Origin: Deltaproteobacteria bacterium
GTDB taxonomy: Bacteria > Desulfobacterota > GWC2-55-46
Direction: 5' to 3'
Length of the DNA: 33,504 nucleotides
NCBI GenBank assembly: GCA_016182655.1
Contig: JACPGB010000002.1
Coordinates: 1 to 33,504, forward strand
The position numbers and the translations under genes were made by a program. Each line of letters opens with the position of its first letter. Positions within the stretch are counted from its first letter, which is position 1. Positions 1,622 to 9,057 of this stretch are shown here, piece by piece. The notes beneath the pieces were generated by a model. It did no database searches and was not told where the DNA came from. It saw nothing but the letters and a program-made list of their open reading frames with translations.

Positions 1622-1966
1622 CTAAATTTTGCAGCATACCTCTTCTTCAAACTGTTTGCCCTGCAACAACTCCCTGAATGCCTGCAATGCCTTCATGGCC
1701 CATTGTTCACCGGGACACCCCCCCTCGGTCATTGCCACGTTCAAGAATTCCAGCAGCTCTTTTTCCGTCGCGCCGGCCTCATGGGCTAATTTGGCATAGG
1801 CCCTTATGCATGGTTCGCATTTTGTAACGACCACAATTGCCAGGGCCGCCAGTATCTTGTACTTCGAGGGCACCGCGTCGTCTTTGAAGGTCTCCTCCCT
1901 CATCCTTACAAGGCCGCCTGTAACCTTTGGAGTAAGTTTCCTGAACTCTTCGTAAAATGTAGCCAT
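1622..1966 (-). CDS. AhpD-like/carboxymuconolactone decarboxylase family protein
   Basis: The 114-aa protein has the all-helical AhpD/CMD layout with a CxxC pair at residues 50-53 (CEPC). In AhpD-type disulfide reductases the motif is CxxCxxxH; here the fourth position after the pair is Tyr57, so the usual proton-relay His is missing, although His62 is nearby. The protein ends EEEVCCKI, adding a vicinal Cys pair near the C-terminus that could bind a thiophilic metal. The start is well set by AGGAGG six bases upstream. It is the last gene of the merR-merT operon, so a thiol redox role in metal stress is likely but inferred. No decarboxylase activity should be assumed. Confidence 0.8.
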   Translation of the reverse strand: MATFYEEFRKLTPKVTGGLVRMREETFKDDAVPSKYKILAALAIVVVTKCEPCIRAYAKLAHEAGATEKELLEFLNVAMTEGGCPGEQWAMKALQAFRELLQGKQFEEEVCCKI

Positions 1967-1991
1967 CCGCTACCTCCTTTTTTTAATTACT

Positions 1992-2309
1992 TCATAATAG
2001 ATACGGTGATACAACCCCGAACAGCACAAACCCTGCGAGAACCCAGAAAAGAAACCTGTTTGTCCTTTTAGAGCGCATATCGCATTTTCTTTCCGAATTA
2101 CACCGGCTCGCCCTTCCATAAGAATAGCGATAAGCTATGCCCAAAAATACAAAGGATATGACCAGAAAATAGGGCCTCAGCCATTCAAATCGTAACAGGA
2201 AGCCCGTTCCCGCAACTCCGAGCACTGAAAGCACGACAGGGCCGACGCAACAAATTGAAGCGAGAAAAGCCGATACGATACCACCTATTGAAGCGAGTCT
2301 TTCCTTCAT
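1992..2309 (-). CDS. merT: MerT-type mercuric ion transporter
   Basis: This 105-aa membrane protein has three hydrophobic segments. The first carries the vicinal Cys pair SICCVGP (Cys20-21) that defines MerT, and the loop between the second and third carries Cys70 and Cys76, spaced six apart like the cytoplasmic pair of classical MerT. MerT moves Hg(II) across the inner membrane to a cytoplasmic reductase. The start at 2309 is chosen because AGAAGG lies five bases upstream and classical MerT is about 116 aa; the open frame extends to 2417 but overlaps the preceding gene. No merP and no canonical merA follow in the operon. Confidence 0.85.
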   Translation of the reverse strand: MKERLASIGGIVSAFLASICCVGPVVLSVLGVAGTGFLLRFEWLRPYFLVISFVFLGIAYRYSYGRASRCNSERKCDMRSKRTNRFLFWVLAGFVLFGVVSPYLL

Positions 2310-2319
2310 AACGCGCCTT

Positions 2320-2514
2320 CTATTTAAGCCGGATCTCTTCGCACACCGTATAGCTGGTAGGCTGGCCGCAGTTTTCCTCCGGATATAATGTGGCTTTCTC
2401 GCAATCTGCGGTGACATCCTTGACGGATATCTCTCCGCACACCTCAGCTACCTTATTTCCGTTATCACCCGTTTTTATTTTAACGGTTACTCCCAGCAGT
2501 TTTTCCCGTGACAT
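2320..2514 (-). CDS. Small four-cysteine protein of the mer operon
   Basis: I do not recognise this 64-aa protein. It is soluble, with no signal peptide, and has four cysteines at 26, 38, 49 and 58, spaced about every ten residues, with charged and beta-prone sequence between. A purine-rich GAGGGGG precedes the ATG. It starts 16 nt after merR and ends 10 nt before merT, so it is certainly co-transcribed with them. A cytoplasmic metal-binding or metal-handing role between regulator and transporter would fit its place, but that is inference from cysteine content and operon position only. Confidence 0.7.
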   Translation of the reverse strand: MSREKLLGVTVKIKTGDNGNKVAEVCGEISVKDVTADCEKATLYPEENCGQPTSYTVCEEIRLK

Positions 2515-2530
2515 ATTTACACCCCCTCAT

Positions 2531-2947
2531 TTATCTCTTTTCTTCCATTGCCCTGAGAATAGGGCACTCTTCGGTCGGGCGTCGTTTGTCGCAACAGTTC
2601 AACAGATCTTTTAGTATTTTTCTCACCGATTCAAGCGCGGCTATCCTGTTCTCAATGGATTTCATTTTGGCCCTGGCCTTCGACTTCACCCGCTCGCAGG
2701 CTTCCTTGGATGAGGCCGGTTCAACCCGTAAACCTAAAAGCTCTCTTATTTCCTCGAGCGTAAAACCGAGTTCCTTGGCGCGGCGGATAAATACGAGCCT
2801 CTTCAACGCGCCTTCGTCGTAGAATCTATACCCCGAAGCCTTTCTTTCAGCCGGGAAAAGGAGCTTACGCCGTTCATAGTACCTTATCGTCTGCAGATTC
2901 ACCCCGGCCCGCCTGGCAAGTTCTCCGATTGTGAACAACCCGTTCAT
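2531..2947 (-). CDS. merR: MerR mercury-responsive transcription regulator
   Basis: The 138-aa protein begins with a MerR winged HTH (TIGELARRAGVNLQTIRYYE, residues 6-25) followed by a long dimerisation helix. The three Hg(II) ligands of Tn501 MerR are Cys82, Cys117 and Cys126. Here Cys84, Cys119 and Cys128 keep the exact 35- and 9-residue spacing, and an extra Cys118 sits beside the second ligand. This separates it from CueR, ZntR or SoxR types. Unlike Tn501, where merR is divergent, it is the first gene of its own operon. The predicted -10 hexamer ends only six bases before the ATG, so its transcript may be leaderless. Confidence 0.9.
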   Translation of the reverse strand: MNGLFTIGELARRAGVNLQTIRYYERRKLLFPAERKASGYRFYDEGALKRLVFIRRAKELGFTLEEIRELLGLRVEPASSKEACERVKSKARAKMKSIENRIAALESVRKILKDLLNCCDKRRPTEECPILRAMEEKR

Positions 2948-4741: not shown

Positions 4742-5413
4742 ATGGATAAGACCAAACTCTGGTACATAAACACGAATAAAATCTTCTCCGGGCTCTCTGT
4801 AAAGGATAAGGGCGAGATAGCGTCCAAATTGACGGAATTGAACGTCAAAAAAAGAGGGTTTGTCTATAACTCGGGGGACAGAGCGGAGACCGTCTATATA
4901 CTCAAGGAAGGCAGGATCAAGATAACGCGGTTTTCCGAGGAAGGGAGGGAACTGACGGTCGATATCCTTGAGCCAGGCGACGTATTGGGCGAGTTGAGCC
5001 TGGCCGGAGAGCGAGAGCGTGAGACGGACGCTGTGGCGATGGAAGATTCCTTCCTGTGCGTCATCAAACGGAAGGACTTTGAGGATTTTATCGGCAAGAT
5101 GCCCGGTCTGTCATTCACGATAACGAAGTGGATGGGCCTTCGGTTAAGAAGGATCGAGAACCGCTTTGAAAACATGATATTCAAAGACGTGCGCACCAGG
5201 CTTGTCGCCGTATTCAGAGATCTGGCGCAACAGCACGGCGTGCCTGCCGATAACGGAACAAAGATTGCGATTCGTCTGTCGCACAAGGATATAGCGGGCC
5301 TTGTAGGGGCCACAAGGGAGACGGTGACGCTTGAGCTTAACAACCTTAAAAGAAGCGGAGTCATCCTGATAGACGGAAAGTATTTCATACTGAGCGCAAA
5401 GCATCCATCCTGA
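4742..5413 (+). CDS. Crp/Fnr-family transcription regulator
   Basis: The 223-aa protein has a cyclic-nucleotide-binding-like beta barrel (residues 15-115; GDRAETVYILKEGRIKI, LEPGDVLGELSL), a long dimer helix (about 122-165), and a C-terminal HTH (179-205) with recognition helix TRETVTLELNNL. It lacks the N-terminal Cys set of Fnr, so it is not an obvious Fe-S oxygen sensor; its ligand is unknown. The Arg-Glu pair that reads the TG of Crp sites is kept (Arg192, Glu193), but the position of E. coli Crp Arg185 is Leu197. ATG 4742 is chosen over 4730 because GAGG sits six bases upstream. A dyad 13 bp beyond its stop is its probable target. Confidence 0.9.
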   Translation: MDKTKLWYINTNKIFSGLSVKDKGEIASKLTELNVKKRGFVYNSGDRAETVYILKEGRIKITRFSEEGRELTVDILEPGDVLGELSLAGERERETDAVAMEDSFLCVIKRKDFEDFIGKMPGLSFTITKWMGLRLRRIENRFENMIFKDVRTRLVAVFRDLAQQHGVPADNGTKIAIRLSHKDIAGLVGATRETVTLELNNLKRSGVILIDGKYFILSAKHPS

Positions 5414-5425
5414 ATTTCCTCCATT

Positions 5426-5441
5426 TGTAAGCTCCCTTACA
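5426..5441 (+). promoter_or_regulatory. Crp-type operator dyad TGTAAG-N4-CTTACA
   Basis: This is a perfect 6+6 inverted repeat, equal to TGTAA-N6-TTACA, the geometry of Crp boxes (TGTGA-N6-TCACA) with G changed to A at the fourth half-site position. In E. coli Crp that G is read by Glu181 and Arg185; the adjacent regulator has Leu at the Arg185 position, which fits the change. The centre, 5433.5, is about 42 bp upstream of the predicted start site near 5476, the class II activator position. The site is seen directly; the pairing with the regulator is inferred. Confidence 0.7.
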
Positions 5442-5460
5442 TCTTTTACTCCTGCGCATC

Positions 5461-5469
5461 TGATATAAT
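5461..5469 (+). promoter_or_regulatory. Extended -10 promoter of the cytochrome operon
   Basis: TGATATAAT is an extended -10 (TGn followed by TATAAT at 5464-5469). No good -35 hexamer lies 16-18 bp upstream; instead the Crp-type dyad covers that region, as at activator-dependent class II promoters. The hexamer ends six bases before the ATG at 5476, so transcription should start at or next to the start codon. Confidence 0.65.
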
Positions 5470-5475
5470 TCGTTC

Positions 5476-5667
5476 ATGAAGAAATCCAAAGGCAAAGCTT
5501 CTCCCGGCGCGGCGAAAGGGGGGAAGGATGCCTGTATCATTTTTAAGAAAGGTGAACGCATAGAATTGAAAAGCTCCATCCTGCCAAAATCTTGCAGAGA
5601 GACGGATAAGGCCCCTGGCGATAAAAACTGTGAACTCGTAGAAGATATTAAGGGAGATAATAAATAG
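5476..5667 (+). CDS. Small lysine-rich hypothetical protein, first gene of cytochrome operon
   Basis: I do not recognise this 63-aa protein. It starts with a basic, Gly/Ala-rich stretch (residues 1-17), then KDACIIFKKGERIELKSSIL, and carries three cysteines (20, 40, 52). There is no signal peptide or membrane helix, so it should be cytoplasmic. No Shine-Dalgarno is seen and the -10 hexamer is six bases before the ATG, so translation is probably leaderless. Its place directly after the Crp/Fnr dyad and before the SEC-C gene supports it being real. A metal-binding or leader-type role is possible but unproven. Confidence 0.6.
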   Translation: MKKSKGKASPGAAKGGKDACIIFKKGERIELKSSILPKSCRETDKAPGDKNCELVEDIKGDNK

Positions 5668-5702
5668 GCGCTCAGTTTAAGCGCCGTGAAAGGAGGAGAG
5701 AG

Positions 5703-5849
5703 ATGGCTAAGAATCTGGACGAAGCGTGCCCTTGCGGCTCAGGAAAGAAATACGGCAAATGCTGCGGAAAAGACGAGCCCTGTTCCTGCGGGTCGGGCAA
5801 AAAGGCCTCCGAATGCTGCTATAAGACAGCCGGTAAAAGCTGCTGCTAA
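5703..5849 (+). CDS. Tandem SEC-C-motif cysteine mini-protein (48 aa)
   Basis: The gene has an excellent RBS (GGAGGAGAG) and encodes 48 residues with eleven cysteines. Two SEC-C type zinc motifs follow each other: CPCGSGKKYGKCC (residues 9-21) and CSCGSGKKASECC (27-39), and the chain ends SCC. In SecA and other proteins a single CxCxSGxxxxxCC/H unit binds one zinc as a short tail; here two units make up nearly the whole protein, which resembles a metallothionein in scale. There is no signal peptide, so it is cytoplasmic. It lies 35 nt after the small Lys-rich gene and 69 nt before the NPC cytochrome, on the same strand. Metal buffering or delivery is inferred. Confidence 0.8.
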   Translation: MAKNLDEACPCGSGKKYGKCCGKDEPCSCGSGKKASECCYKTAGKSCC

Positions 5850-5918
5850 GGTCGTGTTAGGAGAGTTGGGCTTTTTGTGTATCTTTGGCCCGCTCAAACA
5901 GAAAAGGGAGGAGTAGAT

Positions 5919-6473
5919 ATGGTGAAGCCTTTCATAAGGCCGCTTGTAAAGACCCTTCTGGTGATTTCAATGTTTATGCTGCTTGGTTTGCCGGAGGACT
6001 CTTTTGCAAAGGACACAAACCCCTGCTCGAAGATGTCCAGGAACCCATGCGCCGCCGCCGCCAAGAACATCCCTGTCAGAAAGAATCCTGTAAAGGATTC
6101 CGCGAAGCTTAAAGGAATGAGTGAAAAGCTCTGGGCCTCTGCCGCGCTCGGCACGTCAGGCAACTCATGCGCGACCTGCCATCCGAACGGCGCGGGACTT
6201 AAAAAAGAACCCTTCCCTAAGTACATCAAAATGGCCGACGACATCCTGACCATGGACCAGATGATAAACTTCTGCATGACGAATCCGATGAAAGGCAAGC
6301 CCCTTGCCTGGAATTCTCAGGAGATGACCGCTCTTGCCGCTTATATAACGGCGAACTCAAAGGAGAGCGCGGCGACTATGAACCCCTGCAACATGAAAAA
6401 CCCGTGCGATCTCAAAAATCCTTGCGCCAAAAAGAACCCCTGCTCGATGAAGAACCCATGCGGGGGAAGATAG
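5919..6473 (+). CDS. Secreted monohaem cytochrome c with NPC repeats
   Basis: The start at 5919 follows GGGAGGAG and begins a clear signal peptide (residues 1-30, cleavage near DSFA). The mature protein has two early NPC motifs (35-37, 42-44), one haem site CATCH (84-88), and a cytochrome c domain ending MTALAAYITA, with MINFCMTNPMKGKPLAW resembling the distal region of SoxX/TsdA-like cytochromes. The tail, 155-181, is five perfect six-residue units NPCxx(K), giving five cysteines at 157, 163, 169, 175 and 181. The tail looks built for metal or metalloid binding in the periplasm next to a redox centre. It is one base upstream of the five-haem cytochrome gene, so the two are translationally coupled. 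Confidence 0.85.
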   Translation: MVKPFIRPLVKTLLVISMFMLLGLPEDSFAKDTNPCSKMSRNPCAAAAKNIPVRKNPVKDSAKLKGMSEKLWASAALGTSGNSCATCHPNGAGLKKEPFPKYIKMADDILTMDQMINFCMTNPMKGKPLAWNSQEMTALAAYITANSKESAATMNPCNMKNPCDLKNPCAKKNPCSMKNPCGGR

Positions 6474-6474
6474 T

Positions 6475-7644
6475 GTGGTGCTCAGCGGTATAGTCATCAT
6501 GCTGTTTTTGACGCTGGCTTCTCCTCCTGCGGTATTCGGAGGAGAAGCTTCGCCGTCAGTCCATTGGCAAAGGCCTGTAAAAACCGGGTCATATGGAGCC
6601 GTGGACGGCATATATCCTGAAAGCTGCGCCGTGTGCCACCGGGCGCAGTACGATGACTGGAAGGGGGCGCTTCACAGTAAGAGCGTGGGGCCCGGACTTC
6701 TTGCCCAGTTGGACCCTGAGAAAGACCCGGAGACGGCGCTTTCCTGCTACTACTGTCATGCCCCCCTTGCGGCGCAGAATGAAATGATAGTCGATGAGGG
6801 CGGTTATGCCGCAAACGTCTCCTTTGACGAAAGGCTCAAGTCGTCGGGCGTAGGTTGTGCCGCATGCCATGTCAGGGAAGGCGGGGTTTTCGGCCCGCGG
6901 GGGCCGGAAGGGAATAAGGGCTCCCCAAGGGCTCATCACGCCTCGATCCAGAGTGATTTTTTTGAAAGGGCAGAATTCTGTGCCGCCTGCCATCAGCTTG
7001 ACCAAGGCTATGAGCTTAACGGGAAGCTCCTCGTAAATACCTTCACTGAGTGGAAGGAGAGCGAGTATGGAAAAAGTAATGTCCCATGTCAGAGTTGCCA
7101 TATGCCGGGAAGAAGGCACCTCTTCAGGGGCATCCATGACCCTGAGATGGTCAAAAGCGGCATTAAGTTCGAGGTGGAAAGGGCGGACGCGGGGGGTCGC
7201 GTCGGCGCGAAGCTCAGGATAACCAATTCAGGGGTGGGCCATTATTTTCCGACGTACGTCACGCCGCTTGTTATTGTCAAAGGCTTTCTGACCGACTCAA
7301 AAGGAAAGGTGCTGAAAGGTACGTTAAAAGAAAAGATGATAGGCAGGAAGGTCGCCCTTGATCTTTCAAAGGAGCTTTTCGATACGAGGATACCGCCTTT
7401 CAGGAGCTTTGAATTCGCTTACGGCTTAAGGCGCCCGGCCAAAGCCGACAGGCTCATCTTCGAAGTATGGGTTTTTCCGGATGAGTTTTATGACCGTTTT
7501 TTTGAAAACGCCCTCAAGAGGCGGGACCCTGCAATGAAAATGGAAGAGCTTGAAGAAGCGCTAAAAACAACATCCGGTTCAGGCTATCTTTTGTTTAAGA
7601 GGGAGGTATCTCTTGAAGAGATGTCTTCTACCGCCAAAGGCTGA
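6475..7644 (+). CDS. Five-haem cytochrome c (cytochrome c554-like)
   Basis: The 389-aa protein begins with a hydrophobic signal sequence (residues 1-23) and carries five CxxCH haem sites: CAVCH 51-55, CYYCH 91-95, CAACH 128-132, CAACH 169-173 and CQSCH 205-209. The spacing and the opening 'SCAVCHRAQYDDWKGALHS' type segment match the cytochrome c554/multihaem superfamily. After residue 225 comes a haem-free, beta-rich domain with ITNSGVGHYFPTYVTP, as in other multihaem cytochromes with an Ig-like tail. Translation starts at GTG one base after the NPC-cytochrome stop. It is likely periplasmic and an electron partner of the NPC cytochrome; the terminal substrate is unknown. Confidence 0.88.
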   Translation: MVLSGIVIMLFLTLASPPAVFGGEASPSVHWQRPVKTGSYGAVDGIYPESCAVCHRAQYDDWKGALHSKSVGPGLLAQLDPEKDPETALSCYYCHAPLAAQNEMIVDEGGYAANVSFDERLKSSGVGCAACHVREGGVFGPRGPEGNKGSPRAHHASIQSDFFERAEFCAACHQLDQGYELNGKLLVNTFTEWKESEYGKSNVPCQSCHMPGRRHLFRGIHDPEMVKSGIKFEVERADAGGRVGAKLRITNSGVGHYFPTYVTPLVIVKGFLTDSKGKVLKGTLKEKMIGRKVALDLSKELFDTRIPPFRSFEFAYGLRRPAKADRLIFEVWVFPDEFYDRFFENALKRRDPAMKMEELEEALKTTSGSGYLLFKREVSLEEMSSTAKG

Positions 7645-7932: not shown

Positions 7933-9057
7933 ATGTTTTCCTCTATGGATTCAATCCTGTTGCTGCTTGTAGTGTACATGGCGTTCTACAACGGGGCCAA
8001 CGATGTCTCCAAGGGCGTGGCCACCCTTTGCGGCAGCGGCCTGTGCGGCTACAGGACCGCTCTCCTTTGGGGCGCCATCTGGACCGTTGCCGGGGGAATT
8101 ACTGCTTGTTTCCTCGCCTCCGGCCTTTTTAAGGTATTCAGCAATGGAATAGTCTCGAGTGATATCAATCTGACGGTTAGCTTTTCAGTGGCCGTTGCCA
8201 TAGGGGTATCGACCTGGGTACTGCTTGCGACAAAGGCCGGCATGCCGGTATCCACTACCCACTCCATCGTAGGCTCGATCTGCGGCCCGGTGCTCTTTTC
8301 CATGGGACCCTCGAAGATATTGTGGGGCAGCCTGGGATATAAGGTCTTGATCCCCCTGCTTTTAAGCCCGGTCGTAGCCATCTTGGTCTCCGCTATAATA
8401 TACAAGGCAGGGTACGGCCTCCTTTCAAGGCTTTCGAGCTACTGCCTGTGCATCGAAACGAGAGAGAACGTCTGCTGCGACGGCGACGGAGGTGTGCAGG
8501 CGGTTGCTTGCGGTTCCAAATCCACTCTGGCAAAGGCCGGTACCGCGGAGGACTGCGCCGAGGGAATGGGCTCCTTCCTGCGGATGGACCTTAACGATAT
8601 GCTCCACTGGATTTCGAGCGCGCTTATATCCTTTGCCAGGGCGTTGAACGATACGCCCAAGATAGTGGCGGTCCTCTTCGCTTCTACGGCTTTCGCGGGA
8701 GGCGGCCTGAAGTCCGTGTTTCTTCTCGCCGCCCTGTTCATGGGGCTTGGAAGCTATCTTAAAGGGGTAAGGGTGACCGAGACGTTATCAAATAAGATAA
8801 CCGCTATGGACAGGCACGACGGCGTCATGGCGAACACTGCCACCGCGCTTCTTGTGCTCTTTGCCACAAAATTCGGGATGCCGGTATCGACAACTCACGT
8901 CTCCGGCGGCTCGATCATAGGGATAGGGCTTAAACGGGAAGACGGCACGGTCAATAAAAAGATTGTATCCGAGATGCTCCTTGCCTGGCTCGTAACTCTT
9001 CCAGCGGCGGGGGCTATCTCAGGTATGGCTTATATGACGCTAAATCATCTTGTGTAG
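7933..9057 (+). CDS. PiT-family inorganic phosphate transporter with Cys-rich loop
   Basis: The 374-aa membrane protein has the two PHO-4/PiT inverted signature repeats: GANDVSKGVATLCGSG near residue 21 and ALNDTPKIVAVLF near 238, plus the twin MPVSTTHSIVG and MPVSTTHVSGG segments. PiT proteins carry metal-phosphate with protons and also arsenate. The central cytoplasmic loop (about 168-212) holds six cysteines (171, 173, 181, 182, 193, 208), which is not a standard PiT feature. GGAGG sits very close to ATG 7933, so the ATG at 7945 is an alternative start. It is 17 nt before arsM and surely co-transcribed, suggesting a link to arsenic or phosphate balance under arsenic stress. Confidence 0.85.
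   Translation: MFSSMDSILLLLVVYMAFYNGANDVSKGVATLCGSGLCGYRTALLWGAIWTVAGGITACFLASGLFKVFSNGIVSSDINLTVSFSVAVAIGVSTWVLLATKAGMPVSTTHSIVGSICGPVLFSMGPSKILWGSLGYKVLIPLLLSPVVAILVSAIIYKAGYGLLSRLSSYCLCIETRENVCCDGDGGVQAVACGSKSTLAKAGTAEDCAEGMGSFLRMDLNDMLHWISSALISFARALNDTPKIVAVLFASTAFAGGGLKSVFLLAALFMGLGSYLKGVRVTETLSNKITAMDRHDGVMANTATALLVLFATKFGMPVSTTHVSGGSIIGIGLKREDGTVNKKIVSEMLLAWLVTLPAAGAISGMAYMTLNHLV

What the first reader, a model, noticed from the sequence alone, without database searches (positions are those of the whole stretch)
4742..7644. Crp/Fnr regulator, class II dyad and SEC-C/NPC-repeat/multihaem cytochrome operon: candidate new metal-redox system
Seen: a Crp/Fnr regulator, then TGTAA-N6-TTACA centred about 42 bp before an expected start site, extended -10 with no -35, then four same-strand genes: short Cys protein, 48-aa double SEC-C protein, NPC-repeat monohaem cytochrome, five-haem cytochrome. 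The recognition helix keeps Arg192-Glu193 but has Leu197 where Crp has Arg185, matching the G-to-A change in the half site. Known: class II Crp/Fnr sites lie near -41.5. Inference: a regulated periplasmic thiol-haem module, with cytoplasmic zinc/metal mini-protein, placed between mercury and arsenic genes.
Basis: partly seen in the sequence, partly recalled or inferred. Interest (0 to 1): 0.86.

Follow-up and report, generated by a model that had tools for sequence, protein, structure and literature searches.

The report
Regulator-driven thiol-haem cytochrome operon, conserved
In a group of uncultured groundwater and sediment bacteria, a CRP/FNR-type switch protein is always followed by the same DNA docking site and promoter, which in most cases starts an operon for cysteine-rich haem proteins at the first letter of its first gene; this makes a little-described redox operon, sometimes joined to arsenic-handling genes, directly testable.

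Summary
In detail: Crp/Fnr regulator (4742-5413), perfect dyad TGTAAGCTCCCTTACA (5426-5441), extended -10 (5461-5469), then four genes. The site is functional by comparative genomics: all 15 loci found with a close regulator (52-100% identity) carry a 9/10 or 10/10 TGTAA-N6-TTACA just after the regulator gene, four of them examined only after the rule was stated. In 12 of 15 an ATG lies with the dyad centred at -40.5 to -42.5 from its A, so the class II reading is strongly supported and transcription probably starts at that ATG (leaderless mini-ORF, conserved core CIxLKKGE). This points to thiol, sulfur or metalloid chemistry. SEC-C, pentahaem cytochrome, rhodanese and DsrE neighbours are frequent. 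PiT-ArsM follow in three loci and ArsS in one; the mercury link is not conserved. The regulator has one invariant cysteine and lacks the cAMP phosphate and FNR cluster residues, so its signal is unknown. The parts belong to known families; the combination appears undescribed in the libraries and papers searched.

The parts
4742..5413 (+). Crp/Fnr regulator, 223 aa (alternative start 4730); single Cys106; recognition helix TRETVTLEL
   Evidence: Pfam PF00027/PF13545/PF00325 above cut-offs; orthologues 52-89% identical
5426..5441 (+). Dyad TGTAAGCTCCCTTACA, operator; centre -42.5 from A of ATG 5476
   Evidence: Conserved at 15 of 15 regulator loci; alignment A1
5461..5469 (+). Extended -10, TGATATAAT; no -35 at normal spacing
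   Evidence: Sequence; TCTGnTATA conserved in most loci
5476..5667 (+). 63-aa first ORF, probably leaderless (no Shine-Dalgarno), core CIIFKKGER
   Evidence: ATG with dyad centre at -40.5 to -42.5 in 12 of 15 loci; third-codon-position bias in core
5703..5849 (+). 48-aa double SEC-C mini-protein (probable Zn-binding knuckles)
   Evidence: PF02810, two stretches; orthologues at eight regulator loci
5919..6473 (+). Exported NPC-repeat monohaem cytochrome, SoxA/TsdA-type domain, invariant Cys119
   Evidence: PF21342 60 bits vs cut-off 27; aligned to SoxA of solved SoxAX entries; alignment A3
6475..7644 (+). Exported five-haem cytochrome c554/ExtKL-like with C-terminal beta domain
   Evidence: Five invariant CxxCH; PF13435 and PF22113 above cut-off; best fold match pentahaem c552 5ze8
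7933..9057 (+). PiT-type phosphate (arsenate?) permease
   Evidence: PF01384 212 bits; follows the cytochromes in L076 and L078
9075..10022 (+). ArsM-type arsenite methyltransferase
   Evidence: NF008823 247 bits, just under its 263 cut-off; syntenic in L076 and L078
10178..11611 (+). MerA-like FAD disulfide oxidoreductase, no N-terminal MerP domain
   Evidence: PRK06370/MerA-like, below equivalog cut-offs; 92% identical in L076
11630..12292 (+). TVP38/VTT membrane protein
   Evidence: PF09335; 92% identical in L076
3433..3801 (+). DsrE-like protein; in L076, L078 and L176 its relative lies inside the regulated operon
   Evidence: PF02635 22.1 bits vs cut-off 22.7, marginal; positions

Best explanation
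A dedicated Crp/Fnr activator controls an operon directly downstream of its own gene. Supported by comparison: a dimer binds TGTAA-N6-TTACA centred at about -41.5 and activates an extended -10 promoter lacking a -35 (class II), and transcription starts at or next to the ATG of a small ORF that is leaderless in most loci. Inferred: the operon makes an exported Cys-rich (NPC) SoxA/TsdA-type monohaem cytochrome with a His/Cys-ligated haem, whose clustered thiols bind or oxidise soft metals, metalloids or sulfane sulfur and pass electrons to or from the exported five-haem cytochrome. Cytoplasmic SEC-C, DsrE-like and small Cys proteins handle zinc, thiol or sulfur; where PiT, ArsM and ArsS follow, the module is coupled to arsenic methylation or arsenosugar synthesis. 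The regulator probably senses a thiol-reactive species through its single invariant Cys106, since neither cAMP nor an FNR-type cluster fits the sequence.
For: Dyad at 15 of 15 regulator loci in -4 to +83 nt after the stop, including four loci examined after the rule was set. ATG with dyad centre at -40.5 to -42.5 in 12 of 15; in one exception (L155) the ATG is further down and has a Shine-Dalgarno. TCTGnTATA conserved. First ORF has no Shine-Dalgarno whereas secC, npcC, pit and arsM do. The NPC cytochrome is encoded beside the regulator wherever the contig is long enough, except one locus with a non-NPC SoxA-like cytochrome. Invariant CxxCH and Cys119 aligned with the SoxA cysteine; in the SoxA/TsdA family a cysteine ligates the catalytic haem (PMC4423706). 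Rhodanese beside the module in L037, L038, L039, L040 and L151. ArsS in L076 scores 439 vs cut-off 300. One invariant Cys and RE(T/S) in place of the cAMP-site R-S/T.
Against: No binding, start-site or expression data. The dyad also forms a weak RNA hairpin (-1.7 to -7.8 kcal/mol). A conserved dyad with the same half-sites exists at G000:C13 and in genomes lacking this regulator, so the half-site is not private to it. 19 of the 49 class genomes without the regulator still have an NPC-cytochrome match. Arsenic genes are downstream in only three regulator loci. AlphaFold models of the NPC cytochrome (pLDDT 46) and of the haem part of the five-haem cytochrome are unusable. The substrate is inferred from neighbours alone.
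Confidence: 0.62

Rival explanations
1. The dyad is an RNA hairpin that ends or stabilises the regulator mRNA, and the downstream operon has an unrelated constitutive promoter.
For: It lies 13 nt after the regulator stop in the window; TGTAAG/CTTACA folds as a 6-bp stem at -4 kcal/mol with some T after it.
Against: The stem is short and A-U rich with no consistent T run; the sixth pair is broken in L077, L143 and L155; in L173 the left arm overlaps the stop codon; distance to the stop varies from -4 to +83 whereas distance to -10 and ATG is fixed within 2 nt in 12 loci. Sequence identity, not just pairing, is conserved.
Confidence: 0.07
2. The regulator acts on the site as a repressor or as a broader global regulator (for example a nitrogen-, oxygen- or redox-state Crp/Fnr) and the cytochromes are general anaerobic electron-transfer parts with no thiol or metalloid role.
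For: One further dyad site (G000:C13) is conserved and precedes a membrane protein and a very large multihaem cytochrome; the best-scoring annotated regulator models are NtcA and CRP.
Against: Regulator and NPC cytochrome are linked across at least four families; the C13 site is present in genomes without this regulator, so another protein reads it. Position -41.5 with no -35 fits activation better than repression.
Confidence: 0.22
3. The module is primarily an arsenic system: arsenate or phosphate import by PiT, ArsM methylation and ArsS arsenosugar formation, with the cytochromes doing periplasmic arsenite/arsenate redox.
For: PiT-ArsM follow in the window, L076 and L078; ArsS in L076.
Against: Most regulator loci lack these genes; no arsenite oxidase or arsenate reductase catalytic subunit was seen among the genes annotated here.
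Confidence: 0.15

Closest known systems
CRP class II activation (E. coli CRP/FNR promoters)
   Same: Crp/Fnr protein, TGTxA-N6-TxACA dyad, centre near -41.5, weak or absent -35
   Different: Half-site TGTAA; Leu in place of CRP Arg185; one regulator next to one operon; probable leaderless start; no cAMP phosphate-binding R-S/T
SoxA / TsdA cysteine-ligated cytochromes (PF21342; TsdA mechanism PMC4423706)
   Same: Same domain family, CxxCH and a downstream invariant Cys at the SoxA position
   Different: Monohaem, NPC repeats at both ends; catalytic Arg and Ser at Cys-4 and Cys+4 of TsdA are Met115 and Pro123 here, both invariant; no SoxX or SoxYZ noticed in the loci read
ExtKL multihaem (seleno)protein of Geobacter (extHIJKL, PMC5877670) and T. 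tepidum pentahaem c552 (5ze8)
   Same: Five haems, c554-like N-terminal part, beta C-terminal domain, rhodanese neighbour in some loci
   Different: 56.9 bits against the ExtKL cut-off of 250; no Sec codon; no outer-membrane porin seen in the operons; different regulator
Arsenosugar pathway ArsM-ArsS (TIGR04167)
   Same: ArsM in the operon, ArsS in the L076 operon
   Different: Only some loci; window lacks ArsS between ArsM and the MerA-like gene

Membership tests
Crp/Fnr superfamily | cNMP-type beta-roll plus Crp-type HTH | tested here: met
   PF00027 73.6, PF13545 45.3, PF00325 29.2 bits, all over cut-off
cAMP-CRP orthologue | NCBIfam CRP equivalog score; cAMP phosphate-binding Arg-Ser/Thr | tested here: not met
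   85.6 bits vs 266; GEL...RE(T/S) in ten orthologues against GEL...RT in the solved M. tuberculosis homologue
FNR (4Fe-4S oxygen sensor) | N-terminal Cys triad plus central Cys; NCBIfam FNR cut-off | tested here: not met
   60.1 bits vs 228; a single Cys in the window protein
Class II Crp-type promoter | Dyad centre near -41.5, -10 at fixed distance, no -35 | tested here: met
   Sequence spacing conserved; start site itself inferred
Class II Crp-type promoter | Regulator binding and activation at the mapped start | not testable with these tools
   Needs footprint, start mapping and a mutant
SoxA/TsdA cytochrome domain | PF21342 above cut-off, CxxCH and ligand-position Cys | tested here: met
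   60.1 vs 27 bits; Cys119 invariant in 14 sequences, aligned to the SoxA Cys
TsdA / catalytic SoxA enzyme | Active-site Arg at Cys-4 and Ser at Cys+4; TIGR04484 score | tested here: not met
   Met115 and Pro123 invariant instead (TsdA residues from PMC4423706); 53.8 vs 110 bits
ExtKL | NF040886 cut-off | tested here: not met
   56.9 vs 250 bits
SEC-C motif protein | PF02810 above cut-off | tested here: met
   40.5 vs 20.4 bits, two stretches
Arsenite methyltransferase ArsM | NF008823 cut-off | tested here: inconclusive
   247.1 vs 263 bits, E 2e-73

The most novel reading that the evidence does not exclude
A Crp/Fnr regulator that senses a thiol-reactive species (sulfane sulfur, arsenite or similar) through one beta-roll cysteine and switches on, from a leaderless class II promoter, a new periplasmic redox module in which a Cys-ligated haem with NPC thiol repeats exchanges electrons with a pentahaem cytochrome, with a leaderless CIxLKKGE peptide as an additional functional part.
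Probability: 0.25. Interest if true: 0.72.

Novelty: new variant of a known kind. Interest (0 to 1): 0.52.

Why it matters
It gives a regulator, an operator and a target operon in one 3-kb piece from uncultured lineages known here only as MAGs, so the DNA specificity and the signal of an unassigned Crp/Fnr branch can be tested in vitro and in E. coli. It attaches a candidate physiological role to NPC-repeat SoxA-like cytochromes, which got no name beyond the domain in Pfam or NCBIfam, and links them to a rhodanese, DsrE and arsenic gene neighbourhood. The fixed dyad-to-ATG distance also makes a clean natural set for studying leaderless starts at activator-dependent promoters.

Tried and rejected
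The other two exact dyads in the genome: one lies inside a 2289-aa ORF (C44), the other (C13) belongs to a separate conserved promoter. The G424:C60 dyad hit lies inside an isocitrate/isopropylmalate-dehydrogenase-like coding sequence: chance. AlphaFold for the NPC cytochrome was too poor to use; for the five-haem protein only residues about 230-380 are usable, and Foldseek gave pentahaem c552 first, then ApaG-type beta folds. Plasmid search found only weak SoxA-domain matches (best rows 26-42% identity). Literature searches for the NPC repeat, the TGTAA-N6-TTACA site and the cluster found no description. Terminator hypothesis considered and ranked low. cAMP and Fe-S sensing rejected on residues and family scores. 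Mercury-operon membership rejected: merR/merT are on the other strand and missing from the closest syntenic locus.
Full report
OBSERVATION. The regulator is a Crp/Fnr protein. In the 223-aa numbering it carries Arg192, Glu193 and Leu197. The dyad TGTAAGCTCCCTTACA occupies 5426-5441, TATAAT is at 5464-5469 with TGA directly before it (extended -10), and the first ATG is at 5476. Four same-strand ORFs follow: 63 aa, 48 aa (two SEC-C motifs), 184 aa (one CxxCH, seven NPC) and 389 aa (five CxxCH). The window is a whole contig, C35, of a 2.9-Mb genome 97.6% complete.

IS THE DYAD MORE THAN CHANCE? By count alone, no: three exact sites in the genome against 1.8 expected. By conservation, clearly yes. 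Orthologues of the regulator (52-89% identity) were found in 14 other genomes. Together with the window that makes 15 loci, counting the same record only once (L057 is G220, L052 is G410, L054 is G413, L058 is G425). All 15 have TGTAA-N6-TTACA with 10/10 (13 loci) or 9/10 matches (L143, L176), starting from -4 to +83 nt relative to the regulator stop. In single-locus shuffles 3-88 of 20,000 reach the observed score. Four loci (L173-L176) were fetched after the rule was formulated and all four obeyed it; in L173 the left arm includes the stop codon itself. The intergenic alignment of nine loci shows invariant TGTAA, TTACAT and ATG, and TCTGnTATA in most, within otherwise diverged DNA.

POSITION AND START SITE. 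In 12 of 15 loci an ATG places the dyad centre at -40.5, -41.5 or -42.5 from its A. The A is 7 nt after the -10 hexamer in the window, where sigma-70-type promoters start (general knowledge). The window ATG has no Shine-Dalgarno, unlike secC, npcC, pit and arsM. In L155 the ATG is moved downstream (-60.5) and there a Shine-Dalgarno is present. The simplest reading is a class II activator site with a leaderless first ORF. This is inferred; no 5' end was measured. L173 has no ATG near +1, and L174 has one at -39.5 opening a 2-codon ORF.

THE FIRST ORF. Its products share only a core (window CIIFKKGER, L143 CITLKKGEC, L156 CIILKKGEL, L044 CIVLKKSEK); in the seven-sequence core comparison codon position 3 differs far more often than 1 or 2 (124 against 43 and 69), which indicates translation under selection. 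In L037, L052 and L077 the ATG is kept but the frame closes after 8, 3 and 12 codons. In L078 and L176 the ORF is joined in frame to the DsrE-like protein. Its role is unknown; a leader or a small thiol protein are both possible.

THE OPERON. The constant partner is the NPC cytochrome: it, or in L174 a SoxA-like cytochrome without NPC repeats, lies downstream wherever the contig is long enough; L175 and L176 end too early. It is a member of PF21342 (SoxA/TsdA), 60 bits against 27, aligns with the N-terminal haem domain of SoxA in solved SoxAX entries, and keeps Cys119 in all 14 aligned sequences. In TsdA the catalytic haem is ligated by Cys123, and Arg119 and Ser127 are active-site residues (PMC4423706). 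Here the residues at Cys-4 and Cys+4 are invariant Met and Pro, so thiosulfate dehydrogenase activity of the TsdA kind is not expected; electron transfer or another thiol reaction is more likely. Met124 is also invariant and remains a possible ligand. The five-haem protein belongs to the c554/ExtKL neighbourhood but fails the ExtKL cut-off; its closest solved relatives are T. tepidum pentahaem c552 and a multihaem selenoprotein. A small rhodanese with a signal-like N-terminus adjoins the module in L037, L038, L039, L040 and L151.

NEIGHBOURHOOD. The nearest syntenic locus, L076, has dedA, regulator, dyad, p63, dsrE, secC, npcC, c5h, pit, arsM, arsS, merA-like, TVP38 in one run. ArsS is certain (TIGR04167, 439 bits against 300). 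L078 has regulator, dyad, dsrE, npcC, pit, arsM. No arsenic genes were seen in the other regulator loci. In the class sample, 14 of 63 genomes have the regulator and 13 of these have an NPC-cytochrome match, while 19 of the other 49 also have one. G414 (L053/L145) is a natural loss: its close relative G413 (L054) has regulator, dyad and secC, which are missing in G414 although the NPC genes and c5h stay.

THE REGULATOR SIGNAL. Ten aligned orthologues share one Cys in the beta-roll, and the window protein has no other. The site where cAMP-binding relatives have Arg-Ser/Thr reads Arg-Glu here (role of that site from general knowledge). CRP and FNR equivalog cut-offs are far from met. A thiol-reactive signal at Cys106 is therefore my preferred guess, at roughly one in three. 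The recognition helix (TRETVTLEL or a one-residue variant) does not vary at Leu197, so the proposed Leu-to-A:T code cannot be tested by covariation; a distant homologue (39%, G164) with Thr at that position also has a TGTAA dyad nearby.

VERDICT. A real, conserved and very probably regulated gene unit. The regulatory architecture is about 85% likely to be as described; the thiol/sulfur/metalloid redox function is perhaps 40%. Each part is of a known kind; the combination was not found in the libraries or papers searched.

Noticed in passing
G000:C13:116535-116575 (locus L048): A second conserved class II-like promoter, TGTAATCCAGGTTACAT then TATATA, precedes a 346-aa membrane protein and a 1305-aa multihaem cytochrome; it is present in same-genus and same-family genomes that lack the window regulator, so another protein probably reads the same half-site.
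   Followed up: partly
L053 versus L054 (G414 versus G413): Closely related genomes differ by loss of regulator, dyad and SEC-C gene while the NPC genes and pentahaem cytochrome remain.
   Followed up: partly
L052:1-540 (G410): The regulator gene is read in two frames (break near 436), so it is frameshifted or misassembled in this genome although the dyad is intact.
   Followed up: no
L079:5723 (G164:C10): TGTAAGGATCATTACA with TATAAT 22 nt downstream, about 400 bp upstream of a 39%-identical regulator that has a TAG in frame.
   Followed up: partly
L058:4264-5447: In this locus the regulated operon carries a 224-aa probably exported protein without Pfam match and a plastocyanin-like cupredoxin.
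   Followed up: no
window 1622-2947: Minus-strand MerR-family regulator, 64-aa Cys protein, MerT-like protein and an AhpD/CMD-family protein; a CMD relative (76%) also occurs in the L143 locus.
   Followed up: partly
L043 (G198:C45): Several separate NPC-repeat stretches on the minus strand beside a five-haem relative, a possible expansion of NPC proteins.
   Followed up: no
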